Positions 2,241 through 47,709 are shown, counted from the stretch's first letter. The stretch: DNA of 64,000 bases from an uncultured Akkermansia sp. (GCA_947626545.1 CANQSS010000002.1:59500-123499); one strand, 5' to 3'. Notes: a model not told the origin generated them from the sequence alone. Translations and numbers: made by a program.

Positions 2241-2256
2241 GCGCGCGCTATATAAT
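2229..2256 (+). promoter_or_regulatory. Promoter of rpiB-glyA fusion gene
   Basis: TTGACA (2229-2234), 16-nt spacer, TATAAT (2251-2256), ATG 9 nt later at 2266. Confidence 0.75.
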
Positions 2257-2265
2257 AACCGGCGT

Positions 2266-3954
<1,689 letters not shown>

Positions 3955-3956
3955 AC

Positions 3957-4378
3957 CCATATCTGTTCCAGGAAAAAGCACCCCCAATAAGTGGTTAACG
4001 GTGCATGTTGGGGCATAAGCCTCTGATTATTTACGATTTACGATTTACGATTTGCAAATAGTGCGCAGCAAAGCTGCGGCAACTGCAAAGCAAATGCGGA
4101 CGCGTATTCGTAAAGCCGTGATCGGACGTTGTTACAAAGAGGCGGTGGCGCCTATGACGATGTGACCAAGCCGTGGACGCAGCTTTGCATGATTCCGCCC
4201 CTTTCTAACCACGTCCGCACGCGGTTTCATGATTCACCTCCCGCGCCTGCTTCGCATCCTCGCGAGCCGGAGGCGAGCCAAATTTCTAAATCGTAAATCG
4301 TAAATCGTAAATAATCATGGGTTTATTCTCCATAATCTGCCGTTACCTGCCTGTTGGGACCGCTTTTTCTCGCTCCGT
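3957..4378. repeat. Dispersed TIR/heptamer element copy b
   Basis: (atttacg)x3 at 4029-4053; GCGAGCC-hairpin at 4262-4277; (aaatcgt)n at 4287-4312; TIR-like outer ends on both sides. Confidence 0.8.
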
Positions 4379-4410
4379 CTGTGATATTTTTTTGAGAAAT
4401 CGAAAAAAAT

Positions 4411-4454
4411 GATGGACATCTCCCCCAAAAAGAGGTAGACTGCGGGAAGCCTTG
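4411..4454 (+). promoter_or_regulatory. Conserved upstream element shared with the second autotransporter gene
   Basis: gatggacatctcccccaaaaagaggtagactgcgggaagccttg resembles the minus-strand upstream of 47709: ctgtacatctcctttaaaaagtgatagtctgcgggtaatcctcg. Confidence 0.55.
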
Positions 4455-4523
4455 TGGGGGGTCCGGGGTGCGCGTGCTCCTCTTGTTCCTCGGGCTCTAC
4501 TAACCATCAAACTACACTCAGTA

Positions 4524-15991: not shown

Positions 15992-16450
15992 CCACATCTG
16001 TCCCAAGAAAAAACACCCCCAATAGGTGGGTAACGGCACATCATGTAGCATAAGCCGTTGGTTATTTACGATTTACGATTTACGATTTACGATTTGGCCA
16101 AGCCATGAACCTGGTTTCGCATGATTCGCACCCCTTTCGAACCAACAACCTTGTACGATTTGGCCAAGCCATGAACCTGGTTTCGCATGATTCGCGCCCC
16201 TTTCGAACCAACAACCTTGTACGATTTGGCCAAGCCATAAACCTGGCTTCGCATAATTCGCGCCCCTTTCGAACCAACAACCTTGTACGATTTGGCCAAG
16301 CCATGAACCTGGCTTCACATGATTCGCACCCCTTTCGAACCAACAACCTTGTATGATTTTCCCCGCCACCTTTGCTTACGCTCCGCATTTCCCGCGCCGC
16401 AGGCGCGCTATAATCCAAATCGTAAATCGTAAATCGTAAATCGTAAATGA
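15992..16450. repeat. Dispersed TIR/heptamer element copy e, with internal 66-bp tandem repeat
   Basis: Left TIR ccacatctgtcccaagaaaaaacacccccaataggtgggtaacggcacatcatgtagcataagccgttggtt; atttacg array; right array 16417-16448. Confidence 0.88.
16091..16354. repeat. Four tandem copies of a 66-bp unit
   Basis: gatttggccaagccatgaacctggtttcgcatgattcgc(a/g)cccctttcgaaccaacaaccttgtac; unit starts at 16091, 16157, 16223, 16289, with the next partial at 16355. Confidence 0.95.
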
Positions 16451-30310: not shown

Positions 30311-30382
30311 GCGAAGTTAGCTCAGTGGTAGAGCACATCCTTCACACGGATGGGGTCATAAGTTCGAATCTTATACTTCGTA
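30311..30382 (+). tRNA. tRNA-Val (anticodon CAC)
   Basis: GCGAAGTTAGCTCAGTGGTAGAGCACATCCTTCACACGGATGGGGTCATAAGTTCGAATCTTATACTTCGTA; cloverleaf folds. Confidence 0.93.
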
Positions 30383-30444: not shown

Positions 30445-30492
30445 GCTTGCCTTGGTTTGGTGGAGTTTGATAGAGAGGGGGTACATTTAGGG

Positions 30493-31347
30493 TCACATAG
30501 CGGGGTCACATAAAAAATGGGGCAACGCAAATTTTGTTGATAGAGGGGGAGATAGGGTAGCACCACCCGAAGCACCACCCCCCAAAGCGGTTTGCCTGAC
30601 TTCGACAAGTAGGTGATGAATAGAGGATATGTAATCCGTGAACAAGTCTTTTCCGAACAGACCGGCATCTTCCGCATAGAGGCAGAACACCAAACGCACA
30701 CAAAAGCGGTTGAGCTGTTGCAGGGTTGCGGCGTTCACCATGCTCCCGGCTTTTTTCAGGAGAGCATTGTAGATTTCGGAGACGAGAACGCCAGCTTTCA
30801 TCGACATTTCGCGCTCCTTCTCAATGCGCGCATTGGCGGCATCCACGAGGAACTGTAAGCGGTGCCACTGCTCAGGTAATTCTTCCAGAGTAATACAGCT
30901 CGCCGTTACAGCTGGCTGCGGGGCGTTCATATCGTGAATACGTATCTCGCTAAAGTTGCAGGTCACAATCCAGCGCGCGTGTTGATCCACGGGCAGATTA
31001 TCCGAATATCGTTTGGCTTGTTCGTAAGGAGTGAGCATGGCTCCGCCGGATTGCATTTGTGGCGCATTCAAGTCCACCTTGCGTCCTTTTTGCTCAATCA
31101 GCACGCGAGTATCAGGCAGGTAAGCGTCAATGTAGCGCGTGGAATTCCCCACTTGCACGGGCTTCTCAAAAAGAACGGTGCGGCTGATATCATAGCTGCG
31201 CACGCCAAGGATCTCTTGCAACAAATCCCTCCAAAAACTCTGTGCTTCCTGCCTTTCTCCTCCCGTTGCTTCTTTCCATTTTTCTGCGAAAGCCTTTACG
31301 ACTTTCTTCATCGCTGCCTCTGTTGTCGGGCCGGTAGTTGCATCCAT
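30493..31347 (-). pseudogene. N-terminal half of a Type IIG/MmeI-like restriction-methyltransferase (currently disconnected), with an out-of-context C-terminal tail
   Basis: QSFWRDLLQEILGV...VLFEKPVQVGNSTRYIDAYLPDTRVLIEQKGRKVDL (PD-(D/E)xK-like nuclease) ...RFCVRLVFCLYAEDAGLFGKDLFTDYIS then an unrelated tail SIHHLLVEVRQTALGGGASGG. Confidence 0.85.
30625..30639 (-). repeat. 15-bp inverted repeat, left copy (IR-L)
   Basis: + strand ggatatgtaatccgt = reverse complement of acggattacatatcc. Confidence 0.97.
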
Positions 31348-31553
31348 ACGCTAGAGAATATAACACAACCGCCTGCAAAATGGAAGAGCAAACAGACACC
31401 CGCTGGACTGCTCCAACGGGCTGCTCAAACAATGAAGGGGGACACCAACCTTCCCTTGCTCCGGACATACAACCAAAGCGAGGTAACGTCAACATTTCGG
31501 GCAAAAATCAAGCATTCAAGGAGCTTGCGTGGTCTACAAAACGAGGCTGAGAA

Positions 31554-33665
31554 TTGACCCCACAAAACGTTACGGATTACATATCCGCTGTGGTGAGGCC
31601 CTCGGCTGTGCGAGAACGCATCATGAAGCTCTTCCGTGCGCTCAACGTGGAACCGCAGCAGCGCGATCCTTTCGATGAAGAACTGCGAGCCTTCCCCTTC
31701 GTGAATGGCGGGCTTTTCGCAGGGAGTGACACGGACTTCATTCCTCCGCTGGATGAGGCTCTCTGCAATCTCATCCGAGATGCGGCGCACTTTGACTGGC
31801 GCGGCATTTCGCCCACGATTTTCGGCGGTCTTTTCGAAAGCACGCTCAACCCCGCCACGCGCCGCAGCGGCGGCATGCACTACACCAGCGTGGAAAACAT
31901 CCACAAAGTGATTGACCCTCTCTTTCTGAACGCTCTCGCGGAGGAACTGCATAGCATCATGGAGGAAAGCAGAGGAAACACCCTCGTCCGCAAGTTGGAA
32001 ACCTTCCGCGATAAACTCGCCTCGCTCACTTTCCTCGACCCCGCCTGCGGTTCTGGCAACTTCCTCACCGAAACCTTCATCTTCCTTCGCCGCTTAGAGA
32101 ATGAAGCTCTGCGCTACCTTTCCAACGGACAAGCAACCTTTGGCGGCGACTTCTCCCGAGTGAAAGTAACGATACAACAATTTTTCGGGATCGAGATAAA
32201 CGACTTTGCCGTGTCGGTTGCCAAGGCCGCCCTCTGGATAGCCGATGCTCAAATGTGGAGAGAAACGCAGGAGTTCACCGATCAGCAATTGGCGGACTTC
32301 CTGCCGCTGCAAAGTTACGAGAATATCCGCGAGGGCAACGCGCTGGAAATGGACTGGATGGACAACCTCCCCAACCGTCATGTGGACTACATCATCGGCA
32401 ACCCGCCGTTCATAGGCTACTCCCTTCAAACGAAGGAACAGAAAGCTGATATGCAGCGTCTTCTCGGCAAAGCACGAGCATGGGGCAAGCTGGATTTTGT
32501 TTGTGCATGGTTCGATAAAGCGGCTCAAATCTTGCAGCATGATTCCAACACGCGCGCCGCTTTTGTCTCCACCAATTCCATTACTCAGGGCGAACAAGCC
32601 GCTAACCTTTGGAAGCTTCTTACGAGTGAGTACGGCGTTCACATCGACTTCGCCTATCGCACGTTCAAGTGGGCAAATGAAGTAAGAGACACGGCAGCAG
32701 TGCACTGCGTTATCATAGGTTTTAGTACGGGACAAGCAAGAGGATGCACCATTTTTGACGAAGAGGGGATTGCCCACACGACACATCAGATTAACAGCTA
32801 TCTCCTGGATGCGCCTTTCTTGTTTATTGAAAGTCGCAGCTTACCGCTTTGCAACGTACCGAAAATGAGTACGGGAAACCGCCCGGCTGACGGCGGGCAC
32901 CTCATTATTGGGGCAGACGAGTACGATGCTTTTATGGCGCGAGAACCACGAGCCGCAAAGTTCATCAAATCCTTCATGGGAGCGGATGAATTTATCAAAG
33001 GAAAAAAACGGTGGTGCTTATGGCTTGTTAGTGCCAGTCCTGCAGAATTGCGCACAATGCCCGCCGTCATGGAGCGAGTAGAAGCATGCAGACAAGATCG
33101 ATTGAACGCTCCCGACCCCGGACGCCGCAAGTTGGCTGATACTCCCACCCTCTTCCGTGAAACGAATAATCCTGTTCGTTATGTCGCCATTCCGGAAGTT
33201 TCGTCCGAGAATCGTCAGTACATTCCAATGGCTTTTCTGAATGAAACAACGATATGTAGCAATCTCCTCAAGCTCGTCCCCGATGCCACACTTTATCACT
33301 TCGGCGTTCTTTCCTCCGTTATCCACATGGCATGGATGCGGACAGTGGCGGGAAGACTTAAGAGCGACTATCGGTATTCTGCCAAAATTGTTTACAACAA
33401 CTTCCCATGGCCGGAGCCTACCGACAAGCAACGCGAGAAGGTAGAGGCTTGCGCACAGGCAGTTCTGGACGCCCGCGCGAAGTACCCCGAAAGTACGTTA
33501 GCTGACCTTTACGACCCACTGCTCATGCCTCCGGAGCTGCTCAAGGCCCACCGTGCTTTAGACGCCGCCGTTGATGCCGCCTACGGGAGGAAGTTCGCTG
33601 ATGATTCCGACCGCGTGACTCACCTGTTCGAACTCTATCAAAAACTCACAAAGGATGGAAAGTGA
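31554..33665 (+). CDS. C-terminal half of the Type IIG/MmeI-like enzyme: adenine methyltransferase + specificity region
   Basis: ERDP-like region then FVNGGLFAG, SPTIFGGLFESTLNPATRRSGGMHYTSVENIHKVIDPLF, DPACGSGNFLTETF, NPPFIGYS. Confidence 0.9.
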   Translation: MTPQNVTDYISAVVRPSAVRERIMKLFRALNVEPQQRDPFDEELRAFPFVNGGLFAGSDTDFIPPLDEALCNLIRDAAHFDWRGISPTIFGGLFESTLNPATRRSGGMHYTSVENIHKVIDPLFLNALAEELHSIMEESRGNTLVRKLETFRDKLASLTFLDPACGSGNFLTETFIFLRRLENEALRYLSNGQATFGGDFSRVKVTIQQFFGIEINDFAVSVAKAALWIADAQMWRETQEFTDQQLADFLPLQSYENIREGNALEMDWMDNLPNRHVDYIIGNPPFIGYSLQTKEQKADMQRLLGKARAWGKLDFVCAWFDKAAQILQHDSNTRAAFVSTNSITQGEQAANLWKLLTSEYGVHIDFAYRTFKWANEVRDTAAVHCVIIGFSTGQARGCTIFDEEGIAHTTHQINSYLLDAPFLFIESRSLPLCNVPKMSTGNRPADGGHLIIGADEYDAFMAREPRAAKFIKSFMGADEFIKGKKRWCLWLVSASPAELRTMPAVMERVEACRQDRLNAPDPGRRKLADTPTLFRETNNPVRYVAIPEVSSENRQYIPMAFLNETTICSNLLKLVPDATLYHFGVLSSVIHMAWMRTVAGRLKSDYRYSAKIVYNNFPWPEPTDKQREKVEACAQAVLDARAKYPESTLADLYDPLLMPPELLKAHRALDAAVDAAYGRKFADDSDRVTHLFELYQKLTKDGK
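31572..31586 (+). repeat. 15-bp inverted repeat, right copy (IR-R)
   Basis: acggattacatatcc; encodes TDYIS in the same frame as IR-L. Confidence 0.97.
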
Positions 33666-33935
33666 CGCTCCTTCGTATAATTTGCGGAATGACTCCACAA
33701 AGCCAGCGAGATGTGCGGTGCCTTCGAAAGATTTGGGTGAGTGTAAAATGCACTTGCTGAGTGTGCGCGAATAAAAGTTGTTCTCAACCCCCAACCTTCT
33801 CAGCTCCCTGCAAACAATCACATTGCTTACTAAAAAACTCGTGCTACCACTCGTGCTAATCTCATGCTTCATAACACGCCTATTAAACAACCCTCCCTTC
33901 CCCAAAAATCAAGCAAAACAACCCGCTTCCATTTC

Positions 33936-34238: not shown

Positions 34239-34399
34239 AATCGTGATAAGTATAGATTTCACTAGGGCTGCGGCGGTTTTTTTATGTGCCCCTAAATGTG
34301 ACCCCACTATATAGCACCCTTCGCACCCCTGTCAAAATAAAAAAGTGCCCTGTCAGTCACTTATGCACGCTACAAAACTCTAATACCCCCAAAATGTAG

Positions 34400-34472
34400 C
34401 ATCTGGAACGGGATTCGAACCCGTGTTGCCCGCGTGAAAGGCGAGAGTCCTAGGCCTCTAGACGATCCAGAC
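34400..34472 (-). tRNA. tRNA-Glu (anticodon TTC)
   Basis: Reverse complement GTCTGGATCGTCTAGAGGCCTAGGACTCTCGCCTTTCACGCGGGCAACACGGGTTCGAATCCCGTTCCAGATG. Confidence 0.93.
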
Positions 34473-34698: not shown

Positions 34699-37600
34699 TC
34701 AGAAGCTGATGCGATAGCCCGCCGAGGCATCCAAGCTGGTCCATCCGCGGCGGCACTCCACAGAAGCATCCATGAAAATGCTTCCCGAGGAGGAGCCCAA
34801 CGGTATCGTGAGCCCTGCTCCCACTTCCACGCCAATCGCTCCCACCTCCACGCTCTCCACCTCCGCTCTTGTCGCCGCCCCCAGCAGGGTGTTGTCAGCC
34901 GTGCCGGAGCGGTCGCCCACGTCAGCCTTCAGCAGCAAACGCGCCTCGAAAATCGCTGTGCGATTGAAGGAGTTCTCGCCAACGAGGCTCTGCATACGTG
35001 CGCCCAATCCAAAGGTGACCACATCCTGTGAGATTTCATCCACATGCAAACCTGCATCGCTTCCCGTTTCCGTGTACCCCTTGATGCTGGCATGTCTCGC
35101 CTCCACATTGAAGACGGGTTGCAACGCAAAGGTTCCGCTTGCGGAGAAGAGCCTCGTATAGCCCACCTCATACATGGCGCCCAACACGTAGCCATCCGTG
35201 GATCCTCGAGTTCTGTAGCTGCCCGTGCCATAGTTCACCGTGCGATCCAGCTGCACCTCGGCCTTGCCTCCGCTCATCACGAAAGTGTGGATCCATGCGC
35301 CGCCTGTCGCCCGCACGAATCCGCTCAGGTATGTCATATCCACATTGCCCGTGGCCGCATCCACCGATTCCGGCTTCAGATTCCCGTACATGGCGGTGAT
35401 AGCCAGTCCCATCGTCGCCTGCGGGCTCATATCCACATCCACACCCACTGTGCCGCCCCAGTTGTTGAGCGTGTAACCCGGCGCCTGACTGTCCGCATCC
35501 ATCTTATGATAACCGCCTTCGCCGTTGATCCAAGCATGCCAGAGCGGCAGTTGATCGTAGTTGTCGTAGGTTGCCTCAGTGGCCATCGTGGTGGTGCGGT
35601 TGCGGATGGTCTTAATCTGCCGGTGCAGGTCTTCCATCACTGCCGGACCTATCGTCGCAACCGAGGAGCCCGCCACGGATGCCAGGGCGTTCTGAAGCGA
35701 TCCCGTCTGCCCGTTGTCCATCTGAGTGACGAGTCCGTGTATCACGCGGGCGTAGTCAGATTCGCTGTTGGTCAGCATATCAACGAACGAGTCAAGTTCG
35801 GACTTATCCTTGAGCGATCCCCACACCATGGTTGCACCCGCCATCGCATTCTTTTCCCCGTTCGGCATGGCTCGCTCAAACTTGTTCTCCTTGGCCCCCT
35901 CCAACTGGACGATCACGGTTCTTCCTTCCACAACAACTCCTTTCACATCCGCAAAGATAAAGCCGTCGCCGCGCAGCTGCACGTCGATGTCCTCTCCTCC
36001 TCCTTTTACAGCACCCCATTCGCCCAGCGTCAGCTCTCTGCCCCCGCTACCGTTCCAGATATCCCCCGCCGCAGCTTCCAGCATCACCATCGTGTTCTCA
36101 CCGAAGCTCAGTGTATTGCCCTTTACGGTGCTGCCTTCCAAGTTGTAGTTCGAGCTGTTCACCTTGAGATTGACGGTATTGCCGCTGCCAAAGTTCACAT
36201 CGCCCAGCACCACTTGCTCGCCGGCCTTCGACTTGCTCACATCCAGCGTGAGTCTGCCGCCATCCTGCACTTCCACATCCCAGGCGTTGGCAGTGTTGCC
36301 TCCTGCCGCACTCGTATCCACATTGTCCAGCGTCACCTCCGCATTCCTGCTGATCGTCAGCTTGCCTGCGCCCGCTCCCTCAACCGTGCTCGCGAGCTTG
36401 CCGGAGAACACACTCGGTCCCGCCTCTCCCGTGATGGTCGTGTCCCCTCCCGCAGCGCTCTTCAGCGTTCCCGTGCCATTCAGCGCGGTAAGTGAGTTCT
36501 GCGCGCTGCTGCCCAAGTCGAGCAAGCTGTTGCTACTGCCCAGCGTCGCAGAACCTCCCGTCATGGTGGCTCCCTCGGTCAGCTTCAGTTCGCCTCTTTG
36601 CACCGTCAGGTCGCTTCCCTTCATGGCTGCATCAATCCCGCTCACTTCCATGCTCGCGCCCTCCTGCACCTCCACATCCACTCCGGAAAGCACCGTCCGT
36701 TTACCATCCTCCCCCAGCGACACATTCTTCCCTCCTCTCAGCTTCAGACTGGCTCGCTGCTCTCCCTTCACGGCAAGCGTCAGTTTCGTCGAGTCATCGC
36801 CCATGATGGAGGTGCCCTCCAGGTCGCTCTCGCCATTCAGCACGAGTTCCGCTCCGCTGCTCATCACGATTTCTCCTGTCTTCTTTTCGCCCTCGGTGAT
36901 GCTGCCCCTCACGGTGGTTCGGCCACCATCCAGCAGCAAGCCTCGGTAATCCTCTCCCTTATCCTTCTGCTGTTGCACGTCTGCGTAGTCGAATGCCAGA
37001 CCATTGATGGTGTTTTTGGCTCCGCGCAGTTTCAGGGCTCCTGCCGTGATAGTAGTCGTCCCATCCTCCAGCGTGTAGTCTCCTCCCACGGACAGCGTGC
37101 CGAAGCCGGTCTTCTTCACGGCCACACCTTCTCCTCCATCGATGCTTCCGTTGAAGGTGGTATGTTGTCCTTCCACGGTGGTGTCGTCAACGCTCGGGTA
37201 TTTGTCCTTGTCATTGACGCTGACTTTGGCATTGTGGAATGTCACCTCCAGCCGGTTCGCTCCTGTCGGGTCATCCTGGCTGCTGTTTTGCAAGTGCAAC
37301 TGGCTGCCGGTCACACCCAGCAAGTTGTTCACGATGGCTCTGTTGTCCTCCGGGTCATCTGCTGTTCCTCCATCCAGGTTCAGTGTCAGCTCTACTCCCG
37401 GTGTGGACAATACGGTGGATTTCGACGTGCCCAGCGCCGCCGCATCGGTCAGCGTGCTCGTCTCGTTCACCACAAAGACATCGGCCGCTGTGCCCACCAA
37501 CCTGATGCTTCCTCCCTCCACTCTCACTTCTGTGACATCCAACCTCTCCAACAGTTCCGCATCGCTTCCCTTCAGGTCGCTCAGCGTTACTTCGCCTATC

Positions 37601-40600
37601 GTGAGGTCGCCTCCCTGCAGCAGGTGCAAATACGCATCCGCCATCTCCCCATTCTCACCGTCCGATTCAGACAGTCTCCCGATGATACTTGCCACCGCAT
37701 CCGACGACAACCAGAGTTCCACGTTGTCCTTGCTCTCGGCATTCAATGAAAAGCCGCCTTCCCCGGCTATGAGCGCGTTTTCACCTTCTCCGACCGTCGC
37801 GCTCTCCCCCACATTTTCGCCCGCAAAGTGCAGCTCGAGCTTGTGGTTTGCATCGGCCGTATAGCTGCCGGTAATGCCGGTGAGCCGCCCATGCTCATTG
37901 ATCGTGATGCCGTCCAACTGCTCGCCGCTCATCCCATTAACGTTCACCTCAGCGGTCCGTCTCGCAGCTCGCGCTTCGTACGCCGCAGCCACGGCCACTC
38001 CCGATGTCGCAGTGCTCACGTACAGCTTGGCGTTCCTCTTGGTACTGATGCCTCCGGCGGCCAGCTCCACGTTGGCCAGCGTGATCTCTCCGTTCACCAA
38101 GGTGCTCCCCTGCCACGCCGCCTGCTCTCCCTGATTGCCCAAGGTGACCTGCCCTTTCAATTTCGCTCCGTTGCTCGTTGTTCGGGAGGTGATGATGAGT
38201 TGCTCTCCGTTTTCTCCGCCCCCTTCCAGCGTCACGCTTCCCTTCACGTCGCCACCATAGACGCTTTCTCCCGCGAAGCTCACGATCCCACTGCCGCTCA
38301 CTGCGTTGGTCACCGGCTTCTCCAACGCTTTTCCACTCAATTTCCACGTGCCGGTTCCGGTCAACTCGCCCGTGTATCCGGAGATATCTCCGCTCAGTCC
38401 GGCTGTTCCGCTCCCGACGCTCATCGCCTCTTCTCCTGTCACTGTCCCGGCGAGCGTTACTCCACTCAGCGTGGCCGCTTCCATCACCCTGACTTGACCG
38501 GCATTGACGCTCACATTGTTGCCGCTCAGATTGCCACCGTTGAGTGTGAGCGTGGTATCTGCTCCGCCCAAGGCATTCGCACGGCCCGCTTTCAAGGTGG
38601 CTCCGCTGTCCACTTGAATATTCGCGACCGTGTTGTTCCCACCACTCAGCGTCACTTCTCTGCCGGTGATCTTCAATGTTCCACTGCCGCTAACCTCTCC
38701 GGAAAGTGTTGTGGCGTTGCTCACGTTCAGCGTCAGGCTTCCCTCGTTCACGGCGATGCTCCCTTCATGCGTGTCTCCTGTCCCTCGCCATGCCAAAGTG
38801 AAGTCGCCGGCGCCGCTCTTCTCGATGCCCTCTTCATCCAAGGCAAGCTTCAAGCCACTGTTGTCCCCTACTGCCGTACTCGTCGATCCCCAAGTCACGC
38901 CATCGGTGTACGTCGTGCCATCCACACTCACTTTGACGACGGCTTCGCTGCCCTCCTCGGCACTGGCTACCTGCCTGCTTACGTCGGAATTCGCCAGTGG
39001 GGCATTGCTGTACTCCAGCACGCCGCCTTGGAATTTGATCTTGCTGTCGCCCGGCAAGGCTCCGTCATGTGCCAGAACGAGGGTACCCTGGTCTTTCAGT
39101 TGAATTTCCGGAATGGCTGTGTTCTTCAGCTTGAGCGTGAGTTTCGCGTCGCGCACTCGCAGAACACCGCCTCCATCGTCGCTGCTCATGTTCAAACCGC
39201 CCTCGGTACCTCCCTGCTGCGTAAAGGTGTACTCGCCTCCGTCCACATAAACGTTCCTCGGCGCCACCACGCCTTCAATCCGGACAGTTTCGTCTTTCTG
39301 CGCTCCCTGCTTGGTGAAGCGCACGTCCTCCCCGTTGGGCGTCTTGCCTCCCTCCCATTGGCTTCCGGAAGTGTCCGACCACGTCCCTCCTCCGTTCCAC
39401 TCCATTCCTGTCGTCTCCATGTCGATCCAGCCTTCCCTATTCAATCCCAGAACCTTATCGTTCTCTCCATTCACGGTGATGTCAAAGACATCTTCCCACG
39501 TCTTGTCATCCGTCACCAGGGCGTTCCATACGCTGGCAAAGGTACTTTCCTCAAACAGCTGGTATCCCCCCATATCACCGTTGTCCCCCGTCAGTTTAAT
39601 AGCCAGTTTTCCATCTGCCCCCAGTGTGATGCCTCCGAAGTCCAACTTGGCCTGCCCGGTCATGTCGATGCTGAGGCTGGCGCCCTGGGTGTCGGTGAGA
39701 TCCAATGTATCTGCTTTCAAGGTACCTCCCTTGAGCGTTACTGTCGTCCCGCTCGCTATCTTGAGTGTACTCAGCCCCTCATTCGCTCCGGTGCCGATGG
39801 TTAAATTGCTCTGGACATCCAGCTCACCGGTCGTCGCTTTGAAAGTGCCCACCTCCAGAGCCGCTCCGCTGATAGTGATCTTGCCGGCCGTCAGCTCCAA
39901 AGCGCCGCCGTGTTTTCCTCCACCTGATATCGTCAAGTCCCCATTCGTCAGCTTCAAGGTGCCGCCGGTGGAACCACCCGTGTTACTCAACGCGCCGGAA
40001 ATAACGGAACCCGCTCCCTCAAACTCCAGGACGCCTTCATCCACCTTCACGTTGCCCTGCAGCTGGGTTTTCCCGTTGCCCGCCTCATTGGTTCCCTCCG
40101 ATGTCGTAAACTTTTGCGTGCCCGTTCCCTTCTTCACGAGGGTGACGCCTTGCTCAATCACCAAGCCGTCCACCTCTTTTGTCGCCTCTCCAGTTACGTT
40201 AACGGTGAGACTGCCATCTCCTGTGATCGTGCGGTAGCGATCTAATCCTATTTGCAACTTAGTAGACCCCTCATTACCTCCATGCTCAGGATCAAGTTGC
40301 GCGACGCCACCAACTTCGAAATCATCGCCGAGACTTAACCTGGCTCCCCACCCTGACAGCGCCATATCGCCGCTGATACTGCCGCCCTTCTCCATTGTTA
40401 ACATGTACCTCTTGTCTGCCGTTGCAACATTGAAGTTGCCCTGTCCGGTCAACTTGCCCTTCAGGGTGTAGTTGTTGCCGTTGAACTGCACCGCACCCTC
40501 GGCAATATCCAAGTCGTAGTTCAGTGTACCGCCCGTGTCTTGGAAATTCAGGATACCTTCCCCGGTCTTCTGAAGACCCACACCCTCCCCGAGCGTTACG

Positions 40601-43600
40601 CCGCCCAGCTTTTCCGTCACCCAAGCGTCAACCGTCTTCTGAACGTTCGGAGCTCCCTGACTCACCTGGAACTGAACGTACGCCCCCTCGCTACTCTTGT
40701 TGATGGTGCCGCTGCCAGAGAGTTTGCCATTTTGACCCAAGGTGATGTTGCCGTCCATGGTGAGAGTGCCGCCAATGGCAAACTCGCCGTTTTCAACGCT
40801 CACACTGCCGAGAGTGCCAGTGCCGCCGGTCCAATCCAGTTTGCCTCCGCCAGCTAAGGTGAGCTGGTTACCCTCACCTGCGATATCTCCGGTCACGGTG
40901 AGAACCGCCCCCGCTTCACTGAGGTCTATTCTGCCGCCGTTCGCACCCACGGTGAGTTTGCCGGCGCTCACGGTACCCGCCAGGCTGAAGGATCCCCCGT
41001 TCTGCACAGTGAGTACCCCAGTCCAGCTATGCATCCTGTTGGCCAAGGTGAAAGTCTTGGTGTCCACCGTGAGCGCGCCGCTGCCGGTCATCTCTCCCTG
41101 CACATTCGTGCCCACTTGGAAGGTGGCTGCACTCTTCAGGTCTAACTTCGTTCGCACGGTCAGGGTATTGTCCCCATCCGCCGTGAAGGTGTACGTCGCA
41201 CCAGTAGCATCCACGGTCATGTTTTTCACCGTTGTCTCACCGCTAATGCCGAGTTTAACGATGTTCGCTCCGCTGCCCGTGAATTTTACGCTGTTGCCCG
41301 CGGCAAAAGCCTGGTTGCTATCCCACGTGCTGCTCGCGTTATCCCAAATGAACTCTGCGCCGCTGCCGGTGTGGGTGAGCTCGGAGGAGTCGTTGGTAAA
41401 GGTCAGTTTGCCGGTTGCATCCAACGCGACATCGTAAGTGCATTCGCCCAGATCGATGGCTAATTTACCCCCATCAAAGAGTGTCTCTAACCCGTCGAGT
41501 ATCTCGCTGCTCATGTCCGCATCGAAGAGCTGGTAACCGTTGCTCAACAAGCTTGTAGATTCCTCATCCGTCAACCCCGTGAGCGTAATCGTCAACGTAA
41601 AGTCGCCCGCAATCCCATGACCCAGTTTGATCTTGCCGGAATCCGTGCCGCTCAGCTCGATGGTCGCCGGTCCACTGAGCGTGAGGGTGTCGATGTTCAG
41701 CATGTTCCCTCCTCCAACGTGAAGAGAAGATCCCTCTGCCAGCTGCAGGCTCGTGAGACTTGCCGTCGCATCCGCACTGCCGAAGCTCGCCGTCGCTCCT
41801 GCCTGCAGACTCAGCGTGCCGCCCGTGCCCTTCAAACTTCCTGTTGCGCTGAGTCGCTTCCCTTCATTCACGGTGATGGTTGAACCCGCACCGATTTCCA
41901 CATTCATTCCTGCCGTCGCGTCCACGTTAAACACCATGTTGCCGCCTTCCACCGCCGCATAGCTGCCGCCCACGGCAAAGGTATTGCTCCCTCCAAAGGT
42001 CAGCGTGCCAGTGCTTCTCCTTATGCCTACTCCCGAGCCAATGGAGAGGGAGCCGTTGCCGCTATACCTAAGTTCTGAGTCTGACAGATCTGGTGAATAT
42101 TGGGGATTGGTAGTCACCTTGCCCACTTCAATGAACACTTCCTCTGCCTCACCAGTTTTTTCGAAAATGCACTGGTGTCCACCAAAGTTCCCTCCTTCAA
42201 AGAACCATTCGCCAACCTTGAGGTCTCCGCCCAGCTTAATTTGAACGTTGTTCCACGATGCATCTAAGGTGCCGACTTCACCGCCCTCATCTAGTTGCAA
42301 CACCGAACTGTTCCATAGCTGCAGCAAGCCATCCACCTGCAACTTCTTTCTGAAGGTGAACTCTCCCTTCTTCCCCGTGCTGATGAAGTTACCCATCACA
42401 CGCACGTTCACTTTTTCATCGAAGACAGCCTTCACAAGGTTTCCCCCCGATCCTTCTGGGTTGTTGGTCATGTTTCCCTTGACCAAGAGGGTCGAGGAGC
42501 CTTCTGCCGCATCAGAGGTAAAGGTGTAGCCGTCCGTGGCGTTGGCTGCGGTAAAGGTAATGCTGGCTGCCTCAATGCTGGCATCCTTCAGGGTAACTGT
42601 AGCGGCACCTGTCGCTCCCAGATAGACATTGCTGTTGGTAGTCCACCCACTGCCCGGCGCCTGATCAGCTCCCGTAGCCCATTGATTGTCACCGCCTGTT
42701 CCCCAAGTGAGATTGTTACTTTCACCGTTGCCAGGCCAGTACAAATTTCCGCCATCCTCCACGGATTCACCCGCCCAAGTGAGTTTGCCGGTGGAATCAA
42801 GACGGAGGTCTCTACCTTCTGCCTCGAAGGTGAAGTACTGTTCCCACCCACTCGTGAAACCACTTGCACTGAACAGCTGGATCCCCGTCTCCCCATCGAC
42901 GCTTCCAAAGAAAGCGCTGTCCAAATGGATGGTGAGTTTGTTGTCCGAACTGCCGCCATTGAGCGTTTCAATATCGCTGAGCGTAATCTGCTGTCCATTC
43001 GTGCTGAGAGTTAGCTTGCTTCCCGCACCCCACGTCCAGCCGCCTTGGATGGTGAAGGATCCCTCGCTCACCACCAACTCCGAACTCGCCGCTAGTTGCA
43101 TGTTCGTGAGGGTGCTTCCATCCGCCGTACCGAGCGTCAGCTTTCCGCCCGTCACATTCAGCGTCCCCGTGCCGGTGAGCGCCTTGACTGTTCCCGTGAT
43201 GCCGCCCTCCAGCGTTGAGCCGGAAGTAAGAACAATGGTATGATTCTGCAACGCATTGGCATTTGTCGTGTTGCTCAGTTTCAACGTCCCTTCCTCCACA
43301 GCAACCGTGCCGCCGCTACCCGCCTTTGTGGAGAAACTGTCGCCAAACTCCAACGTACCGTTCCCCTTCTTCGTGAGAGTCTTTCCATCACTGCCAGTGT
43401 CAAGTTCACCGGTGAGCGTCATCGCCGCAGTGTTGGTCACCGTTGCGGCGCCATCCAGCACGAAGGCCCAAGAGATTGTCTCTGCCTGACCAATCACCAA
43501 TGCTCCTGCTCCGTCAGCTCCCGATCCTTCTATGTGCACGTGACCTGTTCCCACATTGAATAAGTCCTGACCGCCACCGTCCTTGACTTCCACGATCACG

Positions 43601-46600
43601 CTGCTGCCGTTCTCAATGTCAACCTTCTTTGCATTCTGCAGGCGATCACCCAAGTTGCCGTTCAGCTTAAGGTTGGTGTTGTTGCTCAGTCGCAAAGTGA
43701 GTTCTGCACCATCATAGGCCACGGCAGGGAAAAGGCAACCGAACCAGTTGCTCCAGTCTCCCGTCTGCGCCCCACCAATAGCAATGTCCACCGTACCCAA
43801 ACCCTTCGCGTAGGCTAAGCTTAAGCGGCTAAACACATTCGAGCTCAGTCTCAGCGTGGCTCCATCTTCTATCTCAATGCCTCCATTACCGTTAACTCCG
43901 ACAACATTTCCACTGCTTTCATCATTTGCCAGTGTCCCTTGCACATTCACCGAACCAGCGGCACTGTGCAACTCCACCACTGTACCTTGACCGCTGATCG
44001 TCAGCTTACCTGCAGTGAGCGTACTGCCATCCTCAAATTTCGTTGTGCCGCCGTTTACTGCCACCGTTGAACCGGTCGCATCCACCGTCACATGCTCGCC
44101 AAAGACGCTGCTGTCGTTGATAGTCATCCCCGCAGACACCTTCAGAGTCTGATCGCTCTCCGCACTGAAAGTATACGTCGTAGTTGGTCCAGCAGCGTTC
44201 CCCACAGTGAGCGACTTCATGGTCACTACATTGTCATCTCCCCCGTCAACGGCAACGGTAACAACTGCTGCGCTTCCTTCCAGAGTTACCGTCTTGGTGT
44301 CATCCACCGCCCCCGTTGCAGACCATCCGTCGCCGGAGATACTGTCGCCCAGTGTCACAGCAGTCCCTGCCCCGCTCCACGTGAAATTAGACCCCGGCTC
44401 TACCTGCTCCGTCCAAGTCAGTCTACCGTCCGCCCCAATCCTGAGATCTGCGTACATGCTTGTATCCACAGCTTGCCCATCAATGGTGAAATCAAAGAGA
44501 TCCGCAGAATTCCAGTCTTCCCGCCAACCGCTGAAGAGTTGGTAGCTATTGTTCTGATCCAGCGCATCGCTCGCCAAGTCTATCTTAAGCTTAAGCTTAT
44601 GCGCCCCCTCTGGCGCCGTCAGGGATGAAACGCCGGTCAAGTCGATCGTGAGCTTCTCCTCGAGCTTCAGTACACTGCCCTCGCCCCAAGTCAAGGCGTT
44701 GGTGATGGCAAAATTTCCCTTGCTCACCGTCAGCTCGGCACCCGCTGCCAATGTGAGCGAAGTGAGAGATCCTGCTCCCGTGAGCTGTAAGACCTTCGTC
44801 TCAGCGTTAATCACGAGGGAACCCTCTGTTCCCGCAATCTCGAGATTGCTAATGCTCGAGCCCCCACCTGACACAGTCATTGAGCCACTGAAGAGTCTGA
44901 GCGTTCCTTCCAAGGTTGCCTTGCCGTTTAGTATCAGACTCACTCCCCTCACATCTACACTCGAACTTTGCGAACTCTTGGCCTCGCCGCCCACAATCAC
45001 CTCGTGTGTGCCCTGCACAACAAGTGAACTCTGCCCCTGCACATCAAGCTGCCCAGCCAGTGTCGCCCCATGGTTGAGGATGACTCCTCCCTCTTCCACG
45101 ACCAAAGCCTGAATCGTCCACCAACCGTCTGATGGAGCTCCACCATCATCCGAGGAGTCTAATGTGATTACGTTGTTTCCTTTTTTCCTAAGTCCGACAT
45201 CAGTAAATGTAAATGTTCCCTTAGAGTTGCCACCAACCGCATCGTGCCAATTGAGAACCAAGCCCGTTTGATCTCCATCTGCACCCTTCGTGAACGTTGC
45301 ATTGTTCAACACGAGGAAGACATCCTGCATCACCCCCTCCTTCTTCCTGAACGTGATTCCCTTGCTGTTATTGTCAAACGCCATGGCATTGACAGATAGG
45401 TCCCCACCAAGCTCCACTGTTGAGTTCCAGCTCACGTCGAGTGTACCAAGACTGCTCGCTGCTCCGAGACTGACGATGCAACTGAATCCCGCTAATGTTC
45501 CATCTCCTGTCAACGAACCAAAGCTGTTGCTACCAGACAGTTGCACCTTTGCATCTGATTCGATATTGACTTGTTTACCTACATTGAGGGTTGCTTCATT
45601 CAGCAACAACGTCGTGCCTGAACCCACAACCATTTCCCCAGTCACTGTAACTGGCTTTCCGCCTGTGAACGTGTAAATTGCCGAGCCACTTGCTACGTGG
45701 AGGCTCGCCATCGAGGCCTCATCTGTAACGGTGACCCCAATTCTGTCAGAAACTGCTTCCAAGTATACGTTCTTTCCCGCAGCCCATTCGCTTGAGCCAC
45801 TCTGCCCCTGTTGTTCGCTCCAGACGGAGCCTCCCAATCCAAACGTCAGCGTCGTGAGATCTCCATTGCCTAATCCCCAGTATAAGTTCTCTGCAGAGGA
45901 AATTTTAATGCCAGTGTGGTCGTCATTCCATTCTACCTTGCCGCCGTACGAACTACCCTCTTCCGTGGCAAATGCCACGTGGTCGTACCAAGAGTCATCG
46001 CTGAAGAGCTGGTACCCCTGTCCCTGTACGGTTGCCAAGAAATCATCCGTGAGATGGATGGTGAGCGTGTGTTCATTAGCCGTCAACGCTCCAGACAACT
46101 TAAGCGTTGTAAGAACACCGCTTAGCGTAATGTCCGCATTGTTTGAGAGGTTAATCGCCCCCAGATTGATCGCCCCCTCTGTGATATCACCACCCAACTT
46201 CAGATGTCCGCCCTCGGCGAATGTGAGGGAAGTCAAAGATTTGCCGATCTCCCACGCCGAAACGGAAAGTTCACCTGCCAGAGATAAACCTCCTTCAAAT
46301 GACAATGTGGCTACCGACAGCGTTCCTCCGCTAGCCACATTCACCGTCGTTCCAGTAGCACCCATGAGTTTGCCTTCTACGGCAGATGCCCCAGTAAACT
46401 CGAGAGTAGCCCCCTCCTTCGCCTTCGCCGCCCCCTTGACCGTGTAATCGGCTATGGTCAGTTTATGCGCCCCTGTTGCCCCGATGCCCACATCAAAACT
46501 TGTAACGGTAGGCAAAAGCTCACTCAATGTTTTATCCCCTTCCCCGAGATTGAACACCACCGCCGCATCGGTTGCATCGTCCTTCTTCTGGAACTTGGCG

Positions 46601-47709
46601 TCGCTGTTCCCTGGTTGATCCTTTTTTATTGATTGGAGCTCCAGATCATCGCCTATCACATAGACCCCTCCCCAGCCCACGGTGAAATTGCCAGTGATTT
46701 TTCCTCCCCTAGACAGCGTCAGAGTTCGTTCATCACCTGCCGTAACTCCGTACCATTCAAAGTCGCCGTTCGATGTAAAATTCCCGCTAATGGTAGTTTG
46801 AGTTACCTTATCTCCACCGCCCAATTTCGCACCGGAGTTTAACGTTAGGTCTCCACCCAGATCACCGCTGAACGAAAGTTCGCCGCCAGTCACACTCACG
46901 CTGCCACCAGACATATTGCCTACAACCTTGAATTTACCCCCAGTCACTTCTAAATCTCCACCAGTAATGTTGCCAACAATTTCCACAGTGCCGGCAGAAG
47001 TGATTTTTTGCGACGGTCCTACGATTACCTCCGCATCAGAAATATGCAACTCAGAACCTGCCTCAACACTCACGCCTCCCGTGAACGTAACCTTATGGGT
47101 TCCGCCAATCGCTCCATGTGCAGAAGCGTCAATTTTTAAATAATCCGAGCCATCCAGAGTTACTTTATTGGTGATGGTCAGTGTTGAAGGCGTCGTTGTA
47201 AAGAACTGGAATCGCCCGCCGCAAGAGTCCAATTCAAGAGACCCCAACGTCAGACTGCCTCCCATTTCCACAATCGGGTTGGCCCACCCATTCGATTGGA
47301 CTCCTTCTGTTATTCTGAGTGTACCGTTAAAGTTCCCTCCCTGCTCAAGTACGAGTTGTGCTGCTCCGTCTCCGTCCTTTCTCTTCAGAGTAAGCGTACC
47401 ACCGGTGCCGGCTAACTCCCCCGTTACGGTCACCTTGGTCGCATCTCCGGGCGCGATGTCCAATTCCACCTCACCATCGCTGATGGTGATGCTTTCATAG
47501 GTTTGCGCGCCGCTGAGATCCCGAACATCTGTGTCGCTCCCCGTGTGATTAATGGCCTCTGCTTTTGCCCGTTGGCTAGCGATGAGGAACGCAGCGGCAA
47601 TGCCGGAGGCGGAGGCAACAGTGGTAGGGATGGTAGCAGCAGGTAAAGCGACTGCAGCAAGGCATACCAACAGAGCCTTGCGGAGACCCGTAGGGAGGTG
47701 GAGTTTCAT
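34699..47709 (-). CDS. Giant autotransporter (4336 aa)
   Basis: MKLHLPTGLRKALLVCLAAVALPAA signal; very long Gly/Thr/Ser-rich beta-strand passenger; C-term barrel WHAWINGEGGYHKMDADSQAPGYTLNNWGGTVGVDVDM...SLDASAGYRISF homologous in layout to the 4524-9383 protein. Confidence 0.93.
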   Translation of the reverse strand: MKLHLPTGLRKALLVCLAAVALPAATIPTTVASASGIAAAFLIASQRAKAEAINHTGSDTDVRDLSGAQTYESITISDGEVELDIAPGDATKVTVTGELAGTGGTLTLKRKDGDGAAQLVLEQGGNFNGTLRITEGVQSNGWANPIVEMGGSLTLGSLELDSCGGRFQFFTTTPSTLTITNKVTLDGSDYLKIDASAHGAIGGTHKVTFTGGVSVEAGSELHISDAEVIVGPSQKITSAGTVEIVGNITGGDLEVTGGKFKVVGNMSGGSVSVTGGELSFSGDLGGDLTLNSGAKLGGGDKVTQTTISGNFTSNGDFEWYGVTAGDERTLTLSRGGKITGNFTVGWGGVYVIGDDLELQSIKKDQPGNSDAKFQKKDDATDAAVVFNLGEGDKTLSELLPTVTSFDVGIGATGAHKLTIADYTVKGAAKAKEGATLEFTGASAVEGKLMGATGTTVNVASGGTLSVATLSFEGGLSLAGELSVSAWEIGKSLTSLTFAEGGHLKLGGDITEGAINLGAINLSNNADITLSGVLTTLKLSGALTANEHTLTIHLTDDFLATVQGQGYQLFSDDSWYDHVAFATEEGSSYGGKVEWNDDHTGIKISSAENLYWGLGNGDLTTLTFGLGGSVWSEQQGQSGSSEWAAGKNVYLEAVSDRIGVTVTDEASMASLHVASGSAIYTFTGGKPVTVTGEMVVGSGTTLLLNEATLNVGKQVNIESDAKVQLSGSNSFGSLTGDGTLAGFSCIVSLGAASSLGTLDVSWNSTVELGGDLSVNAMAFDNNSKGITFRKKEGVMQDVFLVLNNATFTKGADGDQTGLVLNWHDAVGGNSKGTFTFTDVGLRKKGNNVITLDSSDDGGAPSDGWWTIQALVVEEGGVILNHGATLAGQLDVQGQSSLVVQGTHEVIVGGEAKSSQSSSVDVRGVSLILNGKATLEGTLRLFSGSMTVSGGGSSISNLEIAGTEGSLVINAETKVLQLTGAGSLTSLTLAAGAELTVSKGNFAITNALTWGEGSVLKLEEKLTIDLTGVSSLTAPEGAHKLKLKIDLASDALDQNNSYQLFSGWREDWNSADLFDFTIDGQAVDTSMYADLRIGADGRLTWTEQVEPGSNFTWSGAGTAVTLGDSISGDGWSATGAVDDTKTVTLEGSAAVVTVAVDGGDDNVVTMKSLTVGNAAGPTTTYTFSAESDQTLKVSAGMTINDSSVFGEHVTVDATGSTVAVNGGTTKFEDGSTLTAGKLTISGQGTVVELHSAAGSVNVQGTLANDESSGNVVGVNGNGGIEIEDGATLRLSSNVFSRLSLAYAKGLGTVDIAIGGAQTGDWSNWFGCLFPAVAYDGAELTLRLSNNTNLKLNGNLGDRLQNAKKVDIENGSSVIVEVKDGGGQDLFNVGTGHVHIEGSGADGAGALVIGQAETISWAFVLDGAATVTNTAAMTLTGELDTGSDGKTLTKKGNGTLEFGDSFSTKAGSGGTVAVEEGTLKLSNTTNANALQNHTIVLTSGSTLEGGITGTVKALTGTGTLNVTGGKLTLGTADGSTLTNMQLAASSELVVSEGSFTIQGGWTWGAGSKLTLSTNGQQITLSDIETLNGGSSDNKLTIHLDSAFFGSVDGETGIQLFSASGFTSGWEQYFTFEAEGRDLRLDSTGKLTWAGESVEDGGNLYWPGNGESNNLTWGTGGDNQWATGADQAPGSGWTTNSNVYLGATGAATVTLKDASIEAASITFTAANATDGYTFTSDAAEGSSTLLVKGNMTNNPEGSGGNLVKAVFDEKVNVRVMGNFISTGKKGEFTFRKKLQVDGLLQLWNSSVLQLDEGGEVGTLDASWNNVQIKLGGDLKVGEWFFEGGNFGGHQCIFEKTGEAEEVFIEVGKVTTNPQYSPDLSDSELRYSGNGSLSIGSGVGIRRSTGTLTFGGSNTFAVGGSYAAVEGGNMVFNVDATAGMNVEIGAGSTITVNEGKRLSATGSLKGTGGTLSLQAGATASFGSADATASLTSLQLAEGSSLHVGGGNMLNIDTLTLSGPATIELSGTDSGKIKLGHGIAGDFTLTITLTGLTDEESTSLLSNGYQLFDADMSSEILDGLETLFDGGKLAIDLGECTYDVALDATGKLTFTNDSSELTHTGSGAEFIWDNASSTWDSNQAFAAGNSVKFTGSGANIVKLGISGETTVKNMTVDATGATYTFTADGDNTLTVRTKLDLKSAATFQVGTNVQGEMTGSGALTVDTKTFTLANRMHSWTGVLTVQNGGSFSLAGTVSAGKLTVGANGGRIDLSEAGAVLTVTGDIAGEGNQLTLAGGGKLDWTGGTGTLGSVSVENGEFAIGGTLTMDGNITLGQNGKLSGSGTINKSSEGAYVQFQVSQGAPNVQKTVDAWVTEKLGGVTLGEGVGLQKTGEGILNFQDTGGTLNYDLDIAEGAVQFNGNNYTLKGKLTGQGNFNVATADKRYMLTMEKGGSISGDMALSGWGARLSLGDDFEVGGVAQLDPEHGGNEGSTKLQIGLDRYRTITGDGSLTVNVTGEATKEVDGLVIEQGVTLVKKGTGTQKFTTSEGTNEAGNGKTQLQGNVKVDEGVLEFEGAGSVISGALSNTGGSTGGTLKLTNGDLTISGGGKHGGALELTAGKITISGAALEVGTFKATTGELDVQSNLTIGTGANEGLSTLKIASGTTVTLKGGTLKADTLDLTDTQGASLSIDMTGQAKLDFGGITLGADGKLAIKLTGDNGDMGGYQLFEESTFASVWNALVTDDKTWEDVFDITVNGENDKVLGLNREGWIDMETTGMEWNGGGTWSDTSGSQWEGGKTPNGEDVRFTKQGAQKDETVRIEGVVAPRNVYVDGGEYTFTQQGGTEGGLNMSSDDGGGVLRVRDAKLTLKLKNTAIPEIQLKDQGTLVLAHDGALPGDSKIKFQGGVLEYSNAPLANSDVSRQVASAEEGSEAVVKVSVDGTTYTDGVTWGSTSTAVGDNSGLKLALDEEGIEKSGAGDFTLAWRGTGDTHEGSIAVNEGSLTLNVSNATTLSGEVSGSGTLKITGREVTLSGGNNTVANIQVDSGATLKAGRANALGGADTTLTLNGGNLSGNNVSVNAGQVRVMEAATLSGVTLAGTVTGEEAMSVGSGTAGLSGDISGYTGELTGTGTWKLSGKALEKPVTNAVSGSGIVSFAGESVYGGDVKGSVTLEGGGENGEQLIITSRTTSNGAKLKGQVTLGNQGEQAAWQGSTLVNGEITLANVELAAGGISTKRNAKLYVSTATSGVAVAAAYEARAARRTAEVNVNGMSGEQLDGITINEHGRLTGITGSYTADANHKLELHFAGENVGESATVGEGENALIAGEGGFSLNAESKDNVELWLSSDAVASIIGRLSESDGENGEMADAYLHLLQGGDLTIGEVTLSDLKGSDAELLERLDVTEVRVEGGSIRLVGTAADVFVVNETSTLTDAAALGTSKSTVLSTPGVELTLNLDGGTADDPEDNRAIVNNLLGVTGSQLHLQNSSQDDPTGANRLEVTFHNAKVSVNDKDKYPSVDDTTVEGQHTTFNGSIDGGEGVAVKKTGFGTLSVGGDYTLEDGTTTITAGALKLRGAKNTINGLAFDYADVQQQKDKGEDYRGLLLDGGRTTVRGSITEGEKKTGEIVMSSGAELVLNGESDLEGTSIMGDDSTKLTLAVKGEQRASLKLRGGKNVSLGEDGKRTVLSGVDVEVQEGASMEVSGIDAAMKGSDLTVQRGELKLTEGATMTGGSATLGSSNSLLDLGSSAQNSLTALNGTGTLKSAAGGDTTITGEAGPSVFSGKLASTVEGAGAGKLTISRNAEVTLDNVDTSAAGGNTANAWDVEVQDGGRLTLDVSKSKAGEQVVLGDVNFGSGNTVNLKVNSSNYNLEGSTVKGNTLSFGENTMVMLEAAAGDIWNGSGGRELTLGEWGAVKGGGEDIDVQLRGDGFIFADVKGVVVEGRTVIVQLEGAKENKFERAMPNGEKNAMAGATMVWGSLKDKSELDSFVDMLTNSESDYARVIHGLVTQMDNGQTGSLQNALASVAGSSVATIGPAVMEDLHRQIKTIRNRTTTMATEATYDNYDQLPLWHAWINGEGGYHKMDADSQAPGYTLNNWGGTVGVDVDMSPQATMGLAITAMYGNLKPESVDAATGNVDMTYLSGFVRATGGAWIHTFVMSGGKAEVQLDRTVNYGTGSYRTRGSTDGYVLGAMYEVGYTRLFSASGTFALQPVFNVEARHASIKGYTETGSDAGLHVDEISQDVVTFGLGARMQSLVGENSFNRTAIFEARLLLKADVGDRSGTADNTLLGAATRAEVESVEVGAIGVEVGAGLTIPLGSSSGSIFMDASVECRRGWTSLDASAGYRISF

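What the first reader, a model, noticed from the sequence alone, without database searches (positions are those of the whole stretch)
30493..33665. Restriction-methyltransferase gene split by an invertible segment with 15-bp inverted repeats inside the coding sequence
Seen directly: the N-terminal nuclease half (minus, 31347 down to 30625) and the methyltransferase/specificity half (plus, 31587-33665) are in opposite orientation. Both carry ACGGATTACATATCC (30625-30639 reversed, 31572-31586), translated as TDYIS in the same frame. Inverting the 932 bp between the repeats joins 723 nt (241 codons) to 2079 nt in frame. The result is one 933-aa protein ...LVFCLYAEDAGLFGKDLFTDYIS|AVVRPSAVRERIMKLFRALNVEPQQRDP..., which reads as a continuous Type IIG/MmeI-like enzyme. 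In the present orientation the N-half runs into an unrelated tail, so the enzyme is OFF. The invertible DNA carries the start codon and presumably the promoter. Inference: phase variation of a defence/epigenetic enzyme by intragenic inversion.
Basis: partly seen in the sequence, partly recalled or inferred. Interest (0 to 1): 0.92.

Follow-up and report, generated by a model that had tools for sequence, protein, structure and literature searches.

The report
Flip-switch inside an Akkermansia restriction gene
In an Akkermansia gut bacterium, a 932-base DNA segment holding the start of a virus-defence and DNA-marking enzyme gene appears to flip back and forth, using the genus's known DNA-flipping signal, so that the enzyme is either joined up (ON) or cut in two (OFF, as in this genome).

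Summary
A 15-bp inverted repeat (30625-30639, 31572-31586) brackets 932 bp carrying a promoter-like block, the start codon and most of the first 241 codons (nuclease plus part of the spacer), opposite in orientation to the methyltransferase/specificity half. Virtual inversion gives a 933-aa protein colinear with MmeI, a Type IIL restriction-modification enzyme. In 78 of 78 GTDB homologue loci with any N-half present, the halves are joined on one strand.

New evidence favours a working switch. (1) The repeat fits the published Akkermansia inverton motif CGGATT..AATCCG. Five tyrosine-recombinase genes of this genome have such inverted pairs beside them with the same layout; the C3 pair matches at 17 of 20 bases. 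(2) Close relatives carry the locus OFF (G071) and joined (G069). (3) In sister genome G072 the two flanks are separate contigs that both begin with the same 19-bp repeat, and the segment is missing, as mixed orientations would give.

No recombinase gene lies in the window, so the invertase presumably acts in trans. Flipping within one strain, enzyme activity and the responsible invertase are not shown. It is a new variant of known kinds: Akkermansia invertons, intragenic inversion, phase-variable RM enzymes.

The parts
30624..30638 (-). left recombination site (repeat ACGGATTACATATCC at 30625-30639): outer AGGATA, spacer TGT, inner AATCCG
   Evidence: motif class
31573..31587 (+). right recombination site (repeat at 31572-31586), inside the coding sequence of the restored gene (codons T-D-Y-I-S)
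   Evidence: sole non-recombinase inverted pair of the motif class found in the own genome at up to 1 mismatch
30640..31571 (.). invertible segment, 932 bp, at present in the OFF orientation
   Evidence: same order in G071, opposite in G069; absent between the two flank contigs of G072
30625..31347 (-). N-terminal half of the MmeI-like gene, 241 codons: PD-ExK nuclease (D74...E85-Q-K87) and start of the helical spacer
30493..30624 (-). out-of-context tail read through in the OFF state (SIHHLLVEVRQ...); differs in G072 and G071, so presumably meaningless
31348..31375 (-). promoter-like block directly upstream of the ATG (TGTGTTATATTCT...GTATG), conserved in nine MmeI-type genes of the genus; lies inside the invertible segment
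   Evidence: not a sigma-70 consensus match
31587..33665 (+). C-terminal half: rest of the spacer, N6-adenine methyltransferase (DPACGSGNFL 392-401, NPPF 513-516 of the restored protein), target-recognition domain, C-terminal bundle
30311..30382 (+). tRNA-Val(cac), left neighbour; also the left neighbour in G072
34399..34472 (-). tRNA-Glu(ttc), right neighbour
30470..30499 (+). outer repeat, left copy (GGGTACATTTAGGGTCACATA...), inverted relative to the right copy at 34283-34312; role unknown
   Evidence: I1; similar stretches on C16 and C11 of the own genome
34283..34312 (-). outer repeat, right copy
   Evidence: I1

Best explanation
This is an ON/OFF phase switch of a single-chain MmeI-family (Type IIL) restriction-modification enzyme, made by site-specific inversion of a 932-bp segment whose right border lies inside the coding sequence. 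The segment carries the promoter, the start codon and most of the first 241 codons. In the ON orientation it is joined in frame to the methyltransferase/specificity half through the shared repeat, which encodes TDYIS. In the OFF orientation, seen here, the promoter drives a truncated 284-aa nuclease/spacer fragment and the C-half has no evident promoter, so the cell neither restricts nor methylates with this enzyme. The inversion is made by a tyrosine recombinase of the family that flips the known Akkermansia invertons, acting in trans; the best candidate is the gene at G000:C3:38250-39300. Shown: repeats, restored frame, motif match, both orientations among close relatives, assembly breaks at both repeats in G072. 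Inferred: the promoter, the loss of function in OFF, reversibility in one strain, the identity of the invertase.
For: Exact repeats and restored 933-aa ORF. End-to-end match to MmeI 5HR4 (E 2e-189) and five MmeI Pfam domains in order; best PADLOC model REase_MTase_IIG, 1104 bits. The halves are contiguous in all 78 GTDB loci with any N-half. The paralogue on C139 is unsplit, with only a one-residue gap at the junction. The repeat fits CGGATT..AATCCG, the published Akkermansia inverton motif (PMC13343947); chance of a given 15-mer matching at up to 1 mismatch about 2e-6. Five own-genome tyrosine-recombinase genes have inverted pairs of this motif about 170 bp apart beside them, all with a perfect inner half AATCCG and a degenerate outer half, as here; reversed control pattern 0 hits. 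C3 pair: TTACGGATTA-GCA-ATCCGCT against TTACGGATTA-CAT-ATCCGCT here. The repeat core GGATTACATATCC brackets the upstream region of a related recombinase in G059 and 150-bp intergenic segments in G011 and G045. G071 OFF, G069 joined, at a shared locus. G072: contigs C49 and C72 both begin TTACGGATTACATATCCGC and lead to the C-half and to the tRNA-Val flank; the N-half segment is not found.
Against: No recombinase gene in the window, so a trans invertase must be assumed. The 3-bp spacer TGT/ACA is not the spacer of any recombinase-linked pair found in this genome. Both orientations were never seen in one strain, and no reads were available. G069 and G070 have their N-half interrupted or cut at the same GAGATTTG, so the joined form in G069 is not a working gene there. 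The sequence upstream of the conserved 30-60 bp is poorly conserved, and the promoter block is not a sigma-70 consensus match. G000 and its relatives are draft assemblies.
Confidence: 0.86

Rival explanations
1. A one-off inversion between repeats that has become fixed: a split, dead pseudogene in this strain rather than a switch.
For: Only the OFF form is seen in this genome. N6-type enzymes are costly and often decay; G069 and G070, and several contig-end fragments, show broken genes.
Against: Both halves are free of stops and frameshifts, and catalytic motifs are intact. The same OFF layout occurs in G071 (C-half 89%, N-half 81% identical), with the two half-genes still open. G072 breaks at both repeats. 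The spacer is kept in G000, G071 and G069.
Confidence: 0.08
2. The switch is real but does not turn methylation off: in the present orientation the C-half is expressed alone (from TTG 31554 or an inner start) as a methyltransferase without nuclease, so inversion toggles restriction while modification stays on.
For: All methyltransferase and recognition motifs are in the C-half, and M.TaqI shows that this class can methylate without the N-terminal parts (PMC4833311). The C-half ORF is open back to 31554.
Against: The promoter-like block leaves with the N-half. The DNA upstream of the C-half in OFF is poorly conserved between this genome and G071. The C-half starts in the middle of the MmeI helical spacer (residues 156-300 in MmeI). 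Start codons differ (TTG in window, ATG within the repeat in G071).
Confidence: 0.12
3. Assembly artefact: a misjoined contig in one draft genome.
For: The genome is a 146-contig draft.
Against: The same arrangement, with its own diverged repeats, was assembled independently in G071 on a 67-kb contig; the breakpoints fall exactly on a genus-wide inverton motif.
Confidence: 0.02
4. A swap of specificity rather than ON/OFF: the N-half cassette joins alternative C-halves.
For: G069 and G071 share 94-100% identity outside the TRD, but the region holding the TRD is only 46-64% identical over much of its length.
Against: The identity drop begins about 800 nt after the repeat, not at it, so TRD exchange is a separate event by homologous recombination. 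No second C-half is present next to the segment in the window.
Confidence: 0.03

Closest known systems
Akkermansia invertons with IR motif CGGATT..AATCCG (Jiang et al. 2019, as cited in PMC13343947; cps1 capsule switch in PMC13343947; inverton group 138 in PMC11892184)
   Same: same repeat motif class, same genus, short inverted sites, ON/OFF output; tyrosine recombinases with the same sites beside them
   Different: those described there are mostly invertible promoters of about 150-300 bp; here the site is inside an ORF and a 932-bp block with promoter and N-terminus moves
Intragenic DNA inversions (Chanin et al. 2024, Nature 634:234; not readable here)
   Same: inverted repeat within a coding sequence, inversion changes the protein
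   Different: whether an MmeI-type gene is in that catalogue could not be checked
MmeI, Type IIL restriction-modification enzyme (PMC4833311, PDB 5HR4)
   Same: five domains in the same order, PD-ExK and NPPF motifs; phmmer E 2e-189 over the full length
   Different: MmeI is not described there as split by an invertible segment
Phase-variable Type IIG enzyme of Campylobacter jejuni (Anjum et al. 2016, cited in PMC5903667)
   Same: single-chain RM enzyme with ON/OFF phase variation
   Different: from own knowledge: a homopolymer tract changes the frame; no inversion, no recombinase
Inverting Type I hsdS loci (Mycoplasma pulmonis, Streptococcus pneumoniae; PMC11868660, PMC11892184)
   Same: site-specific inversion inside RM coding sequence
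   Different: inversion swaps specificity subunits, with a local recombinase; here one enzyme is cut in two and no local recombinase exists
BREX PglX loci of Lactobacillus rhamnosus (full and partial pglX separated by an integrase, PMC7513527)
   Same: methyltransferase gene with a partial copy and recombinase-linked variation
   Different: duplicate partial gene and local integrase; here no duplicate and a different enzyme family

Membership tests
MmeI family (Type IIL restriction-modification) | domain order nuclease - helical spacer - gamma-class N6-adenine methyltransferase - TRD - C-terminal bundle in one chain | tested here: met
   restored ORF: PF20464, PF20465, PF20473, PF20466, PF20467 in order, all above cut-off; met only after in-silico inversion, the present DNA encodes two pieces
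MmeI family (Type IIL restriction-modification) | PD-(D/E)xK residues and NPPF motif | tested here: met
   D74, E85, K87; DPACGSGNFL 392-401; NPPF 513-516 (MmeI D70/E80/K82 in PMC4833311)
MmeI family (Type IIL restriction-modification) | single-strand methylation and cleavage about 20 nt away | not testable with these tools
   needs biochemistry or methylome
Akkermansia inverton (CGGATT..AATCCG class) | inverted pair of sites matching the motif | tested here: met
   one mismatch at the right site, two at the left; inner halves perfect
Akkermansia inverton (CGGATT..AATCCG class) | both orientations occur | tested here: inconclusive
   met between close relatives (G071 OFF, G069 joined, G072 assembly fork); not seen within one strain
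Akkermansia inverton (CGGATT..AATCCG class) | tyrosine recombinase able to act on the site | tested here: inconclusive
   none in the window; 5 motif-linked recombinase genes elsewhere in the genome, C3 site 17/20 identical; no serine recombinase in the genome; activity not tested
Intragenic inversion / phase-variable RM system | inversion changes the protein product and reverses at high frequency | not testable with these tools
   product change shown in silico; frequency needs reads or PCR

The most novel reading that the evidence does not exclude
The tyrosine recombinases that flip this segment appear to have invertible upstream regions of their own, flanked by the same kind of site. The restriction enzyme would then be the output of a two-layer stochastic circuit, in which a self-switching invertase sets the state of phage defence and, through shared sites, of surface loci such as capsule, linking epigenome and coat in Akkermansia.
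Probability: 0.3. Interest if true: 0.78.

Novelty: new variant of a known kind. Interest (0 to 1): 0.62.

Why it matters
It brings a restriction-modification enzyme, hence phage defence, DNA uptake and possibly a methylation regulon, under the inversion system that Akkermansia is known to use for its capsule. It does so by an unusual design: the promoter and N-terminus move as one block, and the recombination site is written into the protein as five residues. It gives a directly testable prediction (two methylomes in one clone) in a much-studied gut genus, and a way to recognise other split RM genes now annotated as pseudogenes or fragments in draft genomes.

Tried and rejected
Chance repeat: rejected on restored frame, motif and conservation, although length alone would not suffice (a second perfect 15-bp inverted repeat lies nearby). 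A regulon of identical repeats in the own genome: none; the other 2-mismatch hits are at about the number expected by chance. Local invertase: no tyrosine recombinase in the window, no resolvase/invertase of the serine type in the genome. Shufflon-like swapping of C-halves: the identity drop between G069 and G071 is at the TRD, not at the repeat. Inverted layout in other taxa: none in 78 GTDB loci. Further intragenic invertons of this motif in the own genome: single sites at C8, C22, C23, C35, C55, C73, C75 have no inverted partner nearby. G069/G070 N-half breakpoints at GAGATTTG: read as an insertion sequence with an 8-bp target duplication, seen only from its two ends in two genomes, not proved. 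Outer repeats at C16: no transposase beside them. Jiang 2019, Chanin 2024 and Ni 2025 are not in the library.

Full report
Observation. The repeat ACGGATTACATATCC lies at 30625-30639 (-) and 31572-31586 (+) and nowhere else in the window, even with two mismatches; shuffles gave 0.06 matches on average. The arms match over 18 nt at 94%, with 932 nt between. Inverting 30625-31586 in silico joins 241 and 692 codons into one ORF of 933 aa. Length alone proves little: a second perfect 15-bp inverted repeat, presumably chance, lies at 33332/35488 in the same 7 kb.

What the gene is. The restored protein matches MmeI (PDB 5HR4) from residue 18 to 929, E 2e-189, without a break at the junction. The five MmeI Pfam domains follow in order, and the best PADLOC model is a Type IIG enzyme. 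The nuclease residues D74, E85 and K87 are in the N-half; the methyltransferase motifs DPACGSGNFL and NPPF are in the C-half. MmeI is nuclease 1-155, helical spacer 156-300, methyltransferase 301-620, TRD 621-825 and a C-terminal bundle (PMC4833311), so the breakpoint falls in the spacer.

Is the junction natural? Of 80 GTDB loci with a relative of the C-half, 78 hold N-half sequence, always contiguous on the same strand; the other two are cut by contig ends. The own genome, a 146-contig draft, has an unsplit paralogue on contig C139; at the junction the alignment has a one-residue gap. Named neighbours (Akkermansia sp. L017, L018) and the autotransporter place the genome in Akkermansia; the genus of the window is otherwise unnamed in the tool.

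Relatives at the locus. Of 77 genus genomes, 28 have a DNA match. G071 has the window's OFF layout, with two half-ORFs of 260 and 694 aa and diverged repeats (21 nt, 86%). G069 has the halves joined across a single repeat. G069 and G071 share the downstream flank and are 94-100% identical, except for the region holding the TRD (46-80%), which looks like a TRD exchange. So two close relatives at one locus differ in orientation. G070, at the same tRNA-Ser site as G071, has the N-terminus pointing away from the tRNA with the repeat upstream of it, as in the ON form, but its N-half is cut after about 50 codons. G069's N-half begins at the same GAGATTTG. An insertion sequence with an 8-bp target duplication would explain both, but only its ends are seen.

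G072. The sister genome with 96% identity in the C-half is the most telling. Its contig C49 begins TTACGGATTACATATCCGC and runs into the C-half; contig C72 begins with the same 19 bases and runs into the left flank with tRNA-Val(cac), as in the window. The N-half segment was not found in the genome. A 19-bp repeat is shorter than the k-mers of usual assemblers, so it should not break an assembly by itself; a mixture of both orientations breaks it exactly at the first base the two forms share and leaves a segment contig of about 1 kb, which binning usually drops (inference). Contig C60 of G069 also starts at such a site beside a recombinase. Four of about 110 motif sites lie within 20 bp of a contig start, against roughly 0.1 expected.

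The recombination site. A 2026 mBio paper gives the Akkermansia inverton motif as CGGATT..AATCCG, after Jiang et al. 2019, and shows that such an element switches the cps1 capsule (PMC13343947). In the own genome, CGGATTNNNAATCCG with up to one mismatch gives 19 places and the reversed control none. Ten of them form five inverted pairs about 170 bp apart, each beside a tyrosine-recombinase gene (C3, C10, C31, C44, C72). Related CGTATTNNNAATACG pairs lie beside recombinase genes on C2 and C4. In all five pairs the half facing the segment is a perfect AATCCG, while the outer half varies; the MmeI sites follow the same rule. The C3 site differs from the MmeI site only in the three central bases over 20. 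The repeat core GGATTACATATCC also brackets the upstream region of a related recombinase in G059 (52% identical to the C3 protein) and 150-bp intergenic segments in G011 and G045. No serine recombinase is present in the own genome.

Mechanism. The block TGTGTTATATTCT..GTATG directly upstream of the start codon is conserved in nine MmeI-type genes of the genus and lies inside the segment, so promoter, start and N-terminus move together. In OFF, the N-half runs into a tail that is not conserved, and the C-half is left behind without a conserved upstream region. Hence ON means a whole enzyme, OFF a nuclease fragment without a target-recognition part. That OFF also abolishes methylation is likely but inferred. 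An OFF cell with a silent C-half cannot cut its own DNA, since the nuclease fragment lacks recognition; on return to ON the genome must be methylated before it is cut, as in other Type IIL enzymes, which need two sites to cleave (PMC4833311).

Novelty. Invertons in Akkermansia, intragenic inversion, and phase-variable RM enzymes are each known. In the papers that could be searched, no MmeI-family enzyme split by an invertible segment was found, but the key catalogues (Jiang 2019, Chanin 2024, Ni 2025) could not be read, so priority is open. I file it as a new variant of a known kind.

Limits. No reads, no expression, no methylome. Relatives are unnamed drafts. The invertase is a candidate by site similarity only.

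Noticed in passing
window 4029-4053/4287-4312, 9405-9443/9682-9714, 13983-14014/14389-14413, 16064-16095/16417-16448, 53443-53476/53709-53738: Pairs of short heptamer arrays (ATTTACG)n and (CGTAAAT)n facing each other about 260-430 bp apart; look like a dispersed palindromic element family.
   Followed up: no
window 16088-16359: 66-bp unit repeated 4.1 times at 95% between one such pair of heptamer arrays.
   Followed up: no
G000 contigs C3, C10, C31, C44, C72, C2, C4, C76: A family of tyrosine recombinase genes, most with a segment of about 150-170 bp next to the gene (602 bp on C4) flanked by inverted 15-bp sites; the recombinases may switch themselves.
   Followed up: partly
G069:C155 (L152) 3202-3239 and window 33665-33702: A 38-bp stretch (CTTCGTATAATTT..GGAATGACTCCACAAAG) borders the interrupted N-half in G069 and lies just after the stop codon of the gene in the window; reminiscent of an insertion-sequence end.
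   Followed up: partly
window 30470-30517 and 34278-34312: Inverted outer repeats (GGGGTCACATTTAGGGGCACAT) around the whole gene between tRNA-Val and tRNA-Glu; similar stretches elsewhere in the genus; possibly the borders of a mobile unit.
   Followed up: partly
G074:C1 (L156) 2170-4923 and 5095-5949: In G074 a joined MmeI-type gene is followed within about 170 bp by a recombinase gene of the same family.
   Followed up: no
G072:C43 (L157), Akkermansia L017: Two MmeI-type genes in tandem, both joined, in G072 and in L017.
   Followed up: no
window 34699-47709 (-): A 4336-aa autotransporter-like protein next to the locus; the paralogue on C139 also follows the end of such a gene.
   Followed up: no
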